A stretch of 44,173 nucleotides of DNA, taken from positions 1 to 44,173 of the IMG/VR virus record IMGVR_UViG_3300005828_000326; one strand, given 5' to 3'. Below, piece after piece: positions 18,783 to 22,233 of this stretch. Each line of letters starts with the position of its first letter. Position 1 is the stretch's first letter. The DNA is from a virus. The position numbers and the translations under genes were made by a program. The notes under the pieces were generated by a model. It worked only from the letters and a program-made list of their open reading frames with translations. It was not told the DNA's origin and searched no databases.

Positions 18783-19020
18783 GTGCCTAACCACCGAAGA
18801 GATAGAGCATTTTTGCTTCGACAATATCCACGTGAAGTATGAAGGCAGGCCCGGCAAGCGGACAATGAAAGTGGCCGAGCTTTGCGCCTATGACGGCTTC
18901 ACGGCGGCGACCCCCGCCGACGCTCTGTATGCCTGCGAGGCCGAGTGTGCGCGCAAAGAGCGAGCCGAGTGGAGCGGTGAGGATGACGACGGGGAGCCCG
19001 AAGACGAAGACGAGACCTGA
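18763..19020 (+). CDS. Small acidic protein
   Basis: An 85-residue protein with a ribosome site GGAGGGGAACCCTG. The N-terminal half alternates beta-type segments with an HVKYEGRPGKRTMKV stretch; the last 20 residues are almost all Asp/Glu, the kind of tail seen in DNA-mimic or SSB-tail-like proteins. Three cysteines are present. No family recognised. Confidence 0.55.
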   Translation: MFRITVECLTTEEIEHFCFDNIHVKYEGRPGKRTMKVAELCAYDGFTAATPADALYACEAECARKERAEWSGEDDDGEPEDEDET

Positions 19021-19198
19021 CCGACCCCGGCCCCAGTCGCCGCTCGAGCGCTGGGTAGACGGCCATCGGCTTTGCGGTCGGGGCTATCAGTGGGAAAGCC
19101 GCACAGCGCGGGATCAGCCCGTCTACGTCTGTCTCGGGTGTGGCGAGAGCTTCCCCGACGATTTCCCCGCCGCGAAGCTCGCGGGGGTTGGAGCATGA
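18983..19198 (+). CDS. Small cysteine-containing protein
   Basis: A 71-residue protein from an ATG within the acidic-tail region of the previous gene (38-base overlap). After a basic N-terminus it has HRLCGRG and VCLGCGESF, which could form a small zinc site. The start is uncertain because GAGG lies directly against the ATG; upstream in-frame ATGs would add residues of shadow composition. Its stop lies in the ribosome site of the helicase gene. Confidence 0.45.
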   Translation: MTTGSPKTKTRPDRPRPQSPLERWVDGHRLCGRGYQWESRTARDQPVYVCLGCGESFPDDFPAAKLAGVGA

Positions 19199-19201
19199 GC
19201 A

Positions 19202-21709
19202 GTGCCAGGCCCGATATGGTTTCGCGCGTGGAATCACTACACGCAGATCTTTCCACCGGATGACTTGATCCTACGCACGCTTGACCTCGAGTGCCGCTAC
19301 CCGACGCAGCACGCGGAAGCGCTTGGCACCGGGTGGCGTCCGCCGATGGGCGAGGGGGGCGGCTGGGACGGGTGGATCAGGTTGCTTCGGAGGCCGAAGA
19401 CGCAGCCCCCCTACGCGCCCACCGGATTGCTTCCCCGGCTTTGCCGGGTGGCCCGCCGCATGGGTTACGAGCCCCACGTCGACGACAAGCGGGAGCGGCC
19501 CCCGGAGGGCGTGCCCGAGTTCCCCAAGCTCGAGCTCCGCGACTATCAGGAGGCAGCCGTTGATGCCGCGATCAAGATGGGCCGCGGGGTGCTCGATCTG
19601 CCCCCTCGGGCGGGCAAGACTCGCATGGCGGCCGAGCTCCAACGGCGGTTGGGGCTCAACACGTTGTGGCTGGCGCCGACCGACCGGATTGTGAGCCAGA
19701 CCGTAGATGTGCTCGAAGAGCACTTCGGCAAGCACTTCGCAGCCCGGCCCGAGAGTGCCGCGCACGCGGCCGAGCTCGCCCACACGCGCGTCGTGTGCAT
19801 GACGGCGGCCATGGCGTCGAGGCTCACCGCGGAATGGTGCCGGACCCGTGACGTTGTGATCGTTGACGAGTGGCATCATTGCCTGTCGCCGACGACGCGT
19901 GTGCAGACGGCTACCGGGTGGGCGCCCATTGCGACGTTACGGGTTGGCGATCTGGTTTGGGCTAGTGGGCCGGGTGGATTGCGTTTGCAGCCTATCGCAC
20001 GGGTGTGGCGTCGGTCTGCGCCAGGCGTGATGTTGCGGATAGTGACGACGAGAGGAACGTTGGAGGTTACCAGCGAGCATGAAATTTATACACCAACGGG
20101 AAAGCGGCGGGCGGGGGAGCTGCGAGTTGGGGGGACCGTATCAGTGCGGCAAATGTGGTCGGTTGATTGCTCGCAAGGGGCCTTGGGTGGTTCACGAGCG
20201 GGCTTGTCGTGGGCCGGATACGGGCACGCGGAAATGCCCGACGTGCGGCGTTGTCGTGCCGAAGCGCAGCTTCGGGGGCCATCGAGTGTCTTGCTTGGGG
20301 CTCAATTCCATGGCCGACCCTTCGACGCATGCTTTGGCAATGAAAAAGCGGAGCAAAAACGAGGCATATCGGAAATATCTAGCGGAACGGATGCGTGGGG
20401 AGCGCAATCCGGCAAAGCGAGTGGACGTCGTTTGGAAGCTTCGTCGGGGATGGAGGGAAGCGCACACGGGTTGCGTGCCTTATGGGCGTGGGGTCGGGGG
20501 CAAGGGGAACGGGCCGACCCCTTCGGAAGTCTTTTTGCGGGAGGGATTGTTGGATCTCGGCTTCCAATTCGAGTTCAAGATTGTCACCGGCAATCGCAAA
20601 GGGGCGCGGTGGTACTCACTAGACGCCGCTCACGAGGTCGCGCGCATAGCCGTGGAAGTGGACGGGAGCAGTCATGCTTCGCGGGGGAAAACGGATGCTC
20701 GGAAGGATGCTTTTTTGACGGGTCGGGGCTGGGTGGTGGTACGGATATCGGTGTTGGACGTGCAAGCGGGCGTGGCTTGGGTATCGCAGAAATTCTCAGC
20801 ATTGCGGCAATTGAGCCCCCGAGTGATTCAGTTTTCGATCTCGAAGTGACTGAAGATCACAACTATTTTGCCGAGGGTGTCTTGGTATCCAACAGCGCTA
20901 GCAAAACTTATACCAAGGACATTTTCCCCAAGCTCGATCACGTCTTCTACCGCTACGGGATGACGGGCACGCACTTTCGCAGCGGCGACGACGCCATGGC
21001 CATGCACGCGCTGTTGAGCGAGACGATCTACCGACTGTCACCGCTCGAGCTCCTACAGCGGGGCCACCTAGTGCCCACGCACGTGTGCTTCGTTCCGGTG
21101 GGCAGCCCCCGACTCCGGGGGGTTGGGCGGACCTTCCACGGGGGGTTTGGGACGGCGGGCGTCCATGAGCACGAAGACCGCACGAGAATGGCTGTAGAGG
21201 CCGCTCTGAGCCTTCATACGCTCGGGCGAAGGGTTATGGTCCTAGTGGGCACGAAAAGCCAAGGACGGGCCATCCAGGGCGCTCTACGGCAGTGTTTGCC
21301 CCTACCTCCCCCAGCCGCAGAGTTCGAGGCCGTGGAATTCCTATCCACCGACCGGCCCCGCCGCGTGCAGCAAGGCGTGATCGACAGCTTCCTGACGAGC
21401 CAGGAGGTAAAGATCCTGATCGGCACCACGATTCTCGGCGAGGGGGTGGATCTGCCCGCGGCCGACGCCCTTGTGTATGCCCGCGGCGAAAAGGCCGAGG
21501 TGTCGTTGACGCAGGCGGTCTACCGGGTGGGGACCGCGGACGGAGCGAAAAAGGCCGCGATCGTGGTCGACTTCGCCGATCGTCACCACAAGCACTTGCT
21601 CGAGCACTCCCTTGAACGGTTGCGGCTGTACTACCGTGAGCCGACATTCACGTTGACGATACTCGACGATCCAGGCCAGCTTGCAGGGTGGGCGGCCAAG
21701 GTGCCGTGA
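19202..21709 (+). CDS. SF2 DNA helicase precursor interrupted by an intein
   Basis: A GTG start (GGAG eight bases upstream) gives an 835-residue precursor. Helicase motifs: Q-like LRDYQEAA (about 112), Walker A PPRAGKT (about 135), Ia LAPTDRIVSQT, II DEWHH (222-226), III MTGTHFR, V GTTILGEGVDLP and a degenerate VI QAVYRVGT. This matches UvsW/RadD-like SF2 enzymes that unwind branched DNA or act in phage replication. The intein begins at Cys227, directly after the catalytic DEWHH, and ends at Asn564. Splicing would join DEWHH to SASKTY, as expected for an intact motif II (DExHH followed by S-K-T-Y), leaving about 497 residues. The frame also remains open across the endonuclease gene described below. 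Confidence 0.85.
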   Translation: MPGPIWFRAWNHYTQIFPPDDLILRTLDLECRYPTQHAEALGTGWRPPMGEGGGWDGWIRLLRRPKTQPPYAPTGLLPRLCRVARRMGYEPHVDDKRERPPEGVPEFPKLELRDYQEAAVDAAIKMGRGVLDLPPRAGKTRMAAELQRRLGLNTLWLAPTDRIVSQTVDVLEEHFGKHFAARPESAAHAAELAHTRVVCMTAAMASRLTAEWCRTRDVVIVDEWHHCLSPTTRVQTATGWAPIATLRVGDLVWASGPGGLRLQPIARVWRRSAPGVMLRIVTTRGTLEVTSEHEIYTPTGKRRAGELRVGGTVSVRQMWSVDCSQGALGGSRAGLSWAGYGHAEMPDVRRCRAEAQLRGPSSVLLGAQFHGRPFDACFGNEKAEQKRGISEISSGTDAWGAQSGKASGRRLEASSGMEGSAHGLRALWAWGRGQGERADPFGSLFAGGIVGSRLPIRVQDCHRQSQRGAVVLTRRRSRGRAHSRGSGREQSCFAGENGCSEGCFFDGSGLGGGTDIGVGRASGRGLGIAEILSIAAIEPPSDSVFDLEVTEDHNYFAEGVLVSNSASKTYTKDIFPKLDHVFYRYGMTGTHFRSGDDAMAMHALLSETIYRLSPLELLQRGHLVPTHVCFVPVGSPRLRGVGRTFHGGFGTAGVHEHEDRTRMAVEAALSLHTLGRRVMVLVGTKSQGRAIQGALRQCLPLPPPAAEFEAVEFLSTDRPRRVQQGVIDSFLTSQEVKILIGTTILGEGVDLPAADALVYARGEKAEVSLTQAVYRVGTADGAKKAAIVVDFADRHHKHLLEHSLERLRLYYREPTFTLTILDDPGQLAGWAAKVP
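20062..20066 (+). promoter_or_regulatory. Ribosome site for nested endonuclease
   Basis: GGAGG stands 12 bases before the ATG of the out-of-frame endonuclease, inside intein block B coding sequence. It supports independent translation of the nested gene. Confidence 0.5.
20079..20849 (+). CDS. Vsr-like (EDxHD/DUF559-type) homing endonuclease nested in intein
   Basis: A 256-residue protein read +1 relative to the helicase frame. Near the N-terminus are two zinc-finger-like motifs (C-x2-C-x12-H-x3-C and C-x2-C-x11-H-x3-C, residues about 23-70). The C-terminal half is a Vsr-like nuclease: TPSEVFLREGLLDLGF (about 145), YSLDAAHEVARIAVEVDGSSH (split here for length: YSLDAA then EVDGSSH, about 179-198), DARKD and GWVVVRISVLDV. 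This is the family of I-Bth0305I, known from genes broken by split inteins. It starts in block B and ends in the C-terminal block region, so both ends are dual-coding. The frame has a TGA just upstream of the open part, so it is not joined to the intein without a frame change. Confidence 0.8.
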   Translation: MKFIHQRESGGRGSCELGGPYQCGKCGRLIARKGPWVVHERACRGPDTGTRKCPTCGVVVPKRSFGGHRVSCLGLNSMADPSTHALAMKKRSKNEAYRKYLAERMRGERNPAKRVDVVWKLRRGWREAHTGCVPYGRGVGGKGNGPTPSEVFLREGLLDLGFQFEFKIVTGNRKGARWYSLDAAHEVARIAVEVDGSSHASRGKTDARKDAFLTGRGWVVVRISVLDVQAGVAWVSQKFSALRQLSPRVIQFSISK

Positions 21710-21740
21710 CACGTTTTTGTGCGGCGAGCGTTATCCCAGG
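21707..21740 (+). promoter_or_regulatory. Phage promoter-class site P2
   Basis: TGACAC, 18 bases, TTATCCCAGG. The first block contains the helicase stop codon. The site is followed within about 30 bases by a strong terminator. Confidence 0.65.
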
Positions 21741-21767
21741 TGAGGGCTGATGACGCCCGCGAAATGT

Positions 21768-21777
21768 CCCCGACCGA
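21768..21777 (+). promoter_or_regulatory. Competing arm upstream of terminator
   Basis: CCCCGACCGA pairs perfectly with TCGGTCGGGG in the terminator hairpin region, so two mutually exclusive folds exist. This is the architecture of an attenuator, though either fold still precedes the T run. Confidence 0.45.
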
Positions 21778-21785
21778 TGCGATCC

Positions 21786-21812
21786 AAGCCCCGCGTCGGT
21801 CGGGGCTTTTTT
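21786..21812 (+). terminator. Rho-independent terminator
   Basis: An 8-bp stem AAGCCCCG/CGGGGCTT with a 7-base loop and a following T run, textbook form. It stops transcription from the helicase operon or from P2 before the next gene, whose ribosome site GGAGGCGAAGGG comes right after. Confidence 0.85.
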
Positions 21813-21831
21813 CCCTACGGAGGCGAAGGGT

Positions 21832-22233
21832 ATGGATCAATCCGCAGTGCAATTGCCGCAAGTGGCGGCCATGAGTGACGAAGAGCGGGCGGAAGCGCAG
21901 CGCAACGTGGCGATAACGCGCGAGCACCTATTGCAGTGGCTACATGCCACGCAACGCGACTGGATCACGTTCAACGCGATCGATCTCGTAAAGGCGCTTT
22001 CCGACGACGGGATCAGGGCCTTTCAGGGGATCGTGGCCGCTTATCGGGACTACCGACGAGGCAAGCGCACCGGCCGAAAAATCGAGGAAACCGACCCGCG
22101 GACGGGCAAAACCTTCGTGGTCGATGAGGTATACGGCGAACAGCTCTCGGTGGTTGAGGCCGAGCAAGCGTTGCGATACCTTCTCGGGATGGTTCGGGAG
22201 CTTGATCCTACCTGGACGCTCGCAAGACTGTGA
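21832..22233 (+). CDS. Unknown helical protein
   Basis: A 133-residue protein with GGAGGCGAAGGGT before the ATG. Mainly helical, with a basic middle (YRDYRRGKRTGRK) that could touch nucleic acid. It is the first gene after the terminator and heads the operon that encodes the replicative helicase and primase, so a replication accessory role is possible. No family recognised. Confidence 0.6.
   Translation: MDQSAVQLPQVAAMSDEERAEAQRNVAITREHLLQWLHATQRDWITFNAIDLVKALSDDGIRAFQGIVAAYRDYRRGKRTGRKIEETDPRTGKTFVVDEVYGEQLSVVEAEQALRYLLGMVRELDPTWTLARL

What the first reader, a model, noticed from the sequence alone, without database searches (positions are those of the whole stretch)
19880..20893. Homing endonuclease encoded out of frame inside an unbroken intein
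The helicase intein has good splicing blocks at both ends, yet its middle makes sense only in the +1 frame, where a 256-residue Vsr-like endonuclease with its own GGAGG and ATG is found. The helicase frame has no stop over the same about 770 bases. Vsr-like endonucleases of the I-Bth0305I type are known as free genes between halves of split inteins; here the host gene is not broken. It could be a step between contiguous and fractured inteins, or a stable dual-coding design in which stop codons are selected against in two frames.
Basis: partly seen in the sequence, partly recalled or inferred. Interest (0 to 1): 0.93.

Follow-up and report, generated by a model that had tools for sequence, protein, structure and literature searches.

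The report
Intein hiding an out-of-frame homing endonuclease
A self-splicing protein insert in a phage helicase carries its DNA-cutting "homing" enzyme in a second, overlapping reading frame while the helicase frame is kept free of stop codons, and about a hundred related elements from phages and bacteria share exactly this layout, which seems not to have been described before.

Summary
Window 19880-20893 is a 338-aa intein in an unbroken helicase gene. Its two ends fold as a HINT splicing domain. The 203 residues between are predicted disordered, because the same DNA encodes a 256-aa EDxHD (DUF559, I-Bth0305I-like) endonuclease in the +1 frame, with its own start.

I found the same layout in 97 sequence clusters at 30-70% GC, in phage isolates (Vibrio, Pseudomonas, Corynebacterium), metagenomic phages and bacterial contigs, inserted mostly after the Walker-B "DE" of helicases, clamp loaders and a terminase. 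Over 20,157 overlapping codons the host frame has 0 stops; the third frame has 1,348. No member has the endonuclease in frame or in the +2 frame. The endonuclease frame is under purifying selection (omega 0.06-0.18). The host frame is kept open but not conserved. The +1 phase is explained by the code: every host-frame stop needs T in an endonuclease third position, and NNT to NNC is always synonymous.

Empty sites, mini-inteins and a nested split-intein clade give the homing cycle and a route to "fractured" genes. The closest precedent, the ShiLan domain (PMC11855218), is an out-of-frame HNH insert with no detectable intein. Expression and splicing remain inferred.

The parts
19202..21709 (+). 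Helicase ORF, 835 aa, unbroken, containing the intein (N-extein 19202-19879, C-extein 20894-21709)
   Evidence: ResIII 1.8e-10, Helicase_C 1.4e-6, PHROG 16 helicase 4.2e-52; relatives L002-L012 lack the insert
19880..20893 (+). Intein, 338 aa, Cys1 ... Ser-Asn, followed by +1 Ser
   Evidence: Hint_2 4e-5, Intein_splicing 5e-4, intein_Cterm 5.8e-6; family models N 41.6 bits and C 31.8 bits
19880..20158 (+). N-terminal half of the HINT splicing domain (residues 1-93), blocks A and B
   Evidence: AlphaFold2 pLDDT about 95; Foldseek to intein structures, E down to 9e-7
20159..20767 (+). Host-frame linker (residues 94-296) with no recognisable fold; its DNA is the body of the endonuclease gene
   Evidence: pLDDT below 50 at residues 94-296; host-frame omega about 0.9-3.1 in relatives
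20768..20893 (+). C-terminal half of the HINT domain (residues 297-338), blocks F and G
   Evidence: AlphaFold2 pLDDT 91-97; intein_Cterm
20079..20849 (+). Homing endonuclease ORF, 256 aa, +1 frame relative to the helicase; Cys-rich N-terminal part, then EDxHD catalytic domain
   Evidence: DUF559 1.7e-7; best PDB fold 3r3p I-Bth0305I, prob 1.00; catalytic columns D182, E193, D195, H199, D206 kept
20520..20813 (+). EDxHD catalytic domain of the endonuclease (residues 148-245)
   Evidence: pLDDT mostly 81-96
20062..20067 (+). GGAGGT, putative Shine-Dalgarno 11 nt upstream of the endonuclease ATG
   Evidence: sequence; Shine-Dalgarno enrichment across the family
20043..20045 (+). TGA closing the endonuclease frame 33 nt upstream of its ATG

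Best explanation
This is an intein whose homing endonuclease is a separate gene nested in the +1 frame of the intein-containing host gene. SHOWN by sequence: one mRNA carries two overlapping frames. The host frame reads helicase-N, HINT-N, a meaningless linker of about 200 aa, HINT-C, helicase-C without a stop. The +1 frame reads an EDxHD endonuclease with its own ATG. INFERRED: ribosomes in the host frame make the precursor, and the HINT domain splices out the intein with its linker to give intact helicase. Ribosomes starting internally, often at a Shine-Dalgarno, make the free endonuclease. The endonuclease cuts intein-free alleles at the same site, and repair copies the whole element in. 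SHOWN: selection keeps the endonuclease sequence and only keeps the host frame open. The +1 phase is the one where this costs the endonuclease nothing, because every host-frame stop needs a T at an endonuclease third position and NNT to NNC is always synonymous. INFERRED: when a stop does enter and an internal start rescues the C-half, a split-intein ('fractured') gene results.
For: 97 clusters (80% identity), GC 0.30-0.70: 0 host-frame stops in 20,157 codons, 1,348 in the third frame, none in frame and none in +2. Within-gene synonymous shuffles expect 482 stops in 63 clusters, observed 0. Third-position T before AA/AG/GA codons 0/5,340 versus 3,440/14,720 elsewhere; fractured and free relatives do not avoid it (70/249, 49/238); in +1 no stop is ever forced, in +2 a mean of 2.3 per protein. 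Endonuclease omega 0.06-0.18, host-frame omega 0.9-3.1. Splicing residues: 97/97 Cys1, 97/97 end in Asn, 97/97 +1 Cys or Ser. HINT fold with a disordered middle; EDxHD fold. Starts: 61/63 ATG, endonuclease frame stopped a median 9 nt upstream, Shine-Dalgarno of 5+ nt in 15/63 versus 6/181 controls. A retrieval based on the intein rather than the endonuclease: 78/80 carry the +1 endonuclease, 2 are mini-inteins. Empty allele in phi674, 531/534 identical after removal of the 302-aa intein. Fractured clade among unbroken members.
Against: No expression, splicing or cleavage data. About half of the first ATGs have no Shine-Dalgarno match of 4 or more nt. The window's endonuclease is a long branch with unsure placement, and its insertion point (DEWHH|S) differs from the usual DE|C. 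Deep branches of the endonuclease tree are weakly supported, so the direction unbroken to fractured is favoured, not proven.
Confidence: 0.87

Rival explanations
1. The endonuclease is made by programmed +1 frameshifting from the helicase frame, as an N-extein/HINT-N/endonuclease fusion, not by internal initiation.
For: The phase is always +1, and about half of the members lack a clear Shine-Dalgarno.
Against: The endonuclease frame is stopped a median 9 nt before its start, so any shift would have to fall in a very short interval that differs between members; 61/63 have an ATG at the start; Shine-Dalgarno matches are about 7 times enriched; and the genetic code alone accounts for the +1 phase.
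Confidence: 0.08
2. The overlap encodes two functional proteins: the host-frame middle is itself a useful domain (true dual coding).
For: It is retained, about 200 aa, in nearly all members.
Against: Host-frame omega 0.9-3.1 against 0.06-0.18 for the endonuclease; 4,591 nonsynonymous versus 551 synonymous host codon changes; no predicted fold; mini-inteins without it exist.
Confidence: 0.03
3. Artefact: a sequencing indel pair, or a chance open frame in GC-rich DNA over a decayed in-frame domain.
For: The window is GC-rich, and one locus alone could be explained this way.
Against: Same phase in 97 clusters down to 30% GC and in isolate genomes; 0 stops against hundreds expected.
Confidence: 0.005
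4. The insert is an RNA-level intron carrying a homing endonuclease gene, and the host-frame reading is incidental.
For: EDxHD endonucleases occur in group I introns (PMC3943268).
Against: Intein blocks, HINT fold and splicing residues in the host frame; no Rfam match in 19000-22000 even at E up to 1.
Confidence: 0.005

Closest known systems
ShiLan domain (Arsenault, Gosselin, Gogarten 2025, PMC11855218)
   Same: Phage insertion, open in the host frame, with an endonuclease hidden in another frame and a patchy distribution that suggests homing.
   Different: HNH rather than EDxHD; third frame rather than +1; GTG start and no detectable ribosome-binding site; the authors found no intein or intron and propose that it is not spliced. 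Here a complete HINT intein surrounds the gene.
Fractured genes with split inteins and Vsr-like endonucleases (Dassa et al. 2009; from own knowledge, paper not held)
   Same: Phage enzyme genes, EDxHD/Vsr-type endonuclease between the two intein halves.
   Different: There the host gene is broken into two ORFs around a free-standing endonuclease gene. Here it is one continuous ORF. Three clusters found here (L060, L138/L141, L140) are of the fractured kind.
Classical inteins with in-frame homing endonuclease (for example LAGLIDADG, PI-SceI)
   Same: HINT splicing domain with the endonuclease inserted between blocks B and F; homing cycle with empty and mini alleles.
   Different: The endonuclease is a separate reading frame and so a separate polypeptide, not a domain of the excised intein.
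I-Bth0305I, the EDxHD homing endonuclease of a phage group I intron (PDB 3r3p)
   Same: Catalytic-domain fold (Foldseek prob 1.00) and EDxHD residues.
   Different: Intron-encoded; no sequence hit to 3r3p at E up to 1.

Membership tests
Intein | HINT fold from N and C splicing blocks | tested here: met
Intein | Nucleophile Cys1, block B TxxH, terminal Asn, +1 Cys/Ser/Thr | tested here: met
   Window: C1, TSEH, SN, +1 S; family 97/97 for Cys1, terminal Asn and +1 residue
Intein | Precise insertion; uninvaded homologues | tested here: met
   L002-L012 for the window; phi673/phi674 exact pair
Intein | Protein splicing activity | not testable with these tools
   needs expression
EDxHD homing endonuclease | Vsr-like catalytic fold with E, D, H, D residues | tested here: met
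   DUF559
EDxHD homing endonuclease | Site-specific cleavage of the intein-less allele | not testable with these tools
   only indirect: empty and filled allele pair
Fractured gene / split intein | Host gene broken into two ORFs | tested here: not met
   Window ORF continuous; met only by L060, L138/L141, L140
ShiLan-type out-of-frame insertion | HNH endonuclease in an insert with no intein or intron | tested here: not met
   EDxHD endonuclease and a complete intein
Conventional full intein | Endonuclease domain in the same frame as the splicing blocks | tested here: not met

The most novel reading that the evidence does not exclude
Overprinted inteins are a major, long-lived class of mobile intein with a separately translated endonuclease, kept possible by a property of the genetic code (NNT to NNC always synonymous), and they are the ancestral state from which at least some phage split inteins and fractured genes arose by a stop plus an internal start.
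Probability: 0.55. Interest if true: 0.92.

Novelty: new variant of a known kind. Interest (0 to 1): 0.87.

Why it matters
It is an architecture for mobile inteins in which the endonuclease is uncoupled from splicing as in introns, yet with no RNA splicing and no broken gene. In the GenBank phages that hold it, the annotated CDS is the helicase alone, so the endonuclease goes unrecorded. It gives a concrete, testable origin for split inteins, and one of the cleanest cases of one-sided overlapping coding, with a code-level reason for the phase. Tractable pairs exist (phi673/phi674 on Corynebacterium glutamicum; Vibrio phages with full, mini and empty alleles).

Tried and rejected
Close relatives of the window's endonuclease in viral contigs by single-sequence search: none, so alignments were used. 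Intron explanation: no Rfam hit. Chance in GC-rich DNA: rejected by shuffles and by low-GC members. Frameshift fusion: disfavoured. First C-block filter was too tight and under-called unbroken inteins as 'partial N'; corrected. A too-diverse intein alignment gave no searchable stretch, and one Pfam call failed on wrong frame coordinates. Plasmid search found only other DUF559 proteins (Hhe, small DUF559 genes), not pursued. Paper searches for an out-of-frame endonuclease in a genuine intein found nothing beyond the ShiLan work; subscription papers and preprints are not held, so absence there is not proof.

Full report
WHAT IS THERE. The helicase ORF 19202-21709 is open for 835 codons and an ATG-started ORF of 256 codons lies in its +1 frame at 20079-20849. 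In the helicase frame, Pfam and NCBIfam find ResIII and Helicase_C in the exteins and intein N and C blocks between them; in the +1 frame they find DUF559. The intein is exactly 19880-20893: Cys1, TxxH block, Ser-Asn end, +1 Ser. Removing it leaves a 497-aa helicase, and close relatives L002-L012 are contiguous across that point. AlphaFold2 of the window's intein, read in the helicase frame, gives pLDDT about 95 for residues 1-93 and 297-339 and below 50 for 94-296; Foldseek matches inteins at E down to 9e-7. The +1 product has a confident catalytic domain whose best PDB match is I-Bth0305I (3r3p, prob 1.00, target TM 0.66), and it keeps the columns invariant among 32 relatives, including D182, E193, D195, H199 and D206.

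IT IS A FAMILY. tblastn with the endonuclease hit 38 phage records, and in the ones inspected the match lies inside an unbroken annotated helicase CDS but in its +1 frame: Pseudomonas phage MR14, Vibrio lentus phages, Vibrio phage 104E43.1, Corynebacterium phage phi673; Vibrio phage CP-T1 and 159E43-1b were added later. Profile-guided scans of viral and genome contigs gave 122 distinct endonuclease DNAs in 104 clusters at 80% identity: 97 clusters with an unbroken intein and the endonuclease at +1, none in frame, none at +2, three fractured, four free-standing. An intein-based retrieval that does not use the endonuclease gave 78 of 80 loci with the +1 endonuclease and two mini-inteins. Hosts include DEAD/ResIII helicases, SNF2, RecQ-like and Strawberry-notch helicases, the clamp-loader delta' subunit and a terminase. 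88 of 97 inteins follow the Walker-B residues DE; 97 of 97 have Cys1, a terminal Asn and a +1 Cys or Ser. Six of the dual loci are on bacterial contigs, including the Ktedonobacter racemifer isolate (L103).

NOT CHANCE. The 97 clusters (GC 0.30-0.70) have 0 host-frame stops in 20,157 codons, against 1,348 in the third frame. Permuting synonymous codons within each endonuclease, which preserves its protein and codon usage and is therefore conservative, predicts 482 host-frame stops in 63 clusters; host codon usage predicts 587; observed 0. The mechanism is visible: a host-frame stop needs an endonuclease codon ending in T followed by AA, AG or GA. Such T is found 0 times in 5,340 risky positions but in 23% of 14,720 others, while fractured and free relatives do not avoid it. 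Clusters share ancestry, so these totals should not be read as independent trials.

WHY +1. For all codons NNT to NNC is synonymous, so an endonuclease of any sequence can be written with no stop in the host frame when it lies at +1. At +2 the same proteins would force a mean of 2.3 stops, mostly Met followed by a codon beginning with A (this last from the code table), and only 9 of 97 could avoid all. No programmed frameshift is needed to explain the phase.

ONE-SIDED CODING. In 59 pairs of relatives, changes at endonuclease positions 1, 2 and 3 are 1,817, 1,664 and 3,975. Host-frame codon changes are 4,591 nonsynonymous to 551 synonymous. Nei-Gojobori omega is 0.06-0.18 for the endonuclease and 0.9-3.1 for the host frame. 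The host frame is kept open, not kept as a protein sequence. Omega in overlapping frames is only approximate, but the contrast is large.

EXPRESSION (INFERRED). 61 of 63 members have an ATG; the endonuclease frame is stopped a median 9 nt upstream, which leaves little room for a frameshift fusion; Shine-Dalgarno matches of 5 or more nt precede 15 of 63 starts versus 6 of 181 control ATGs. In many members the GAGGT lies in the codons of an Asp-Glu-Val-Leu motif of the intein. In the window GGAGGT lies 11 nt before the ATG.

MOBILITY. Corynebacterium phage phi674 is an empty allele of phi673: removing the 302-aa intein gives 531/534 identical residues. The +1 residue is Cys in phi673 and Val in phi674, and 7 of the 17 nucleotide differences lie within 77 nt downstream of the site, consistent with co-conversion. 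In Vibrio phages the same helicase site has full (L018, K391), mini (K459, 268E42.1, PS65A.1, about 150 aa) and empty (PS17B.1, 1.285.O) alleles. This is the set of states expected of a homing cycle.

LINK TO FRACTURED GENES. L060, L138/L141 and L140 (GC 0.33-0.40) carry the same endonuclease overlapping a helicase-N/intein-N ORF and a separate intein-C/helicase-C ORF, with 15-30 host-frame stops; the C-halves begin with ATG inside the endonuclease gene. They form one clade (SH-aLRT 99) within a mostly unbroken group (91). L105, a free endonuclease beside an uninterrupted helicase, groups with unbroken L108 (99). The simplest reading is unbroken first, then fractured or freed. The tree is a quick one with many weak forks, and the window's row is a long branch.

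COMPARISON. The only published relative in concept that I found is the ShiLan domain (PMC11855218): an out-of-frame HNH gene in a phage methylase insert that is open in the host frame, but with no intein or intron, a different frame and no ribosome-binding site. Fractured genes (Dassa et al. 2009) and I-Bth0305I are cited from own knowledge; those papers are not held. EDxHD as a homing family is described in PMC3943268, and DUF559 is assigned to it in PMC9403480.

LIMITS. No expression, splicing or cleavage data were available. The literature library lacks subscription papers and preprints.

Noticed in passing
L013:3525-5813: A close relative of the window's helicase has a different, in-frame intein-like insert of about 260 aa at Walker A (PRC...N|SGKT), with no +1 endonuclease.
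   Followed up: partly
L296 (Vibrio phage PS65A.1) 501-3632: One helicase gene holds a large in-frame intein at Walker A (GGGK|T) and a mini-intein at Walker B.
   Followed up: partly
L099:1652-6586: RecQ-like gene carries two inteins: an upstream one with in-frame LAGLIDADG (Hom_end) and a downstream one with the +1 EDxHD endonuclease.
   Followed up: partly
window 19867-19896: The window's intein sits three residues downstream of the usual DE|C site (DEWHH|S), perhaps because Trp follows DE and Ser is the nearest usable +1 residue.
   Followed up: no
L060, L138, L140: Candidate new naturally split inteins with very short separation between halves and the endonuclease gene overlapping both.
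   Followed up: partly
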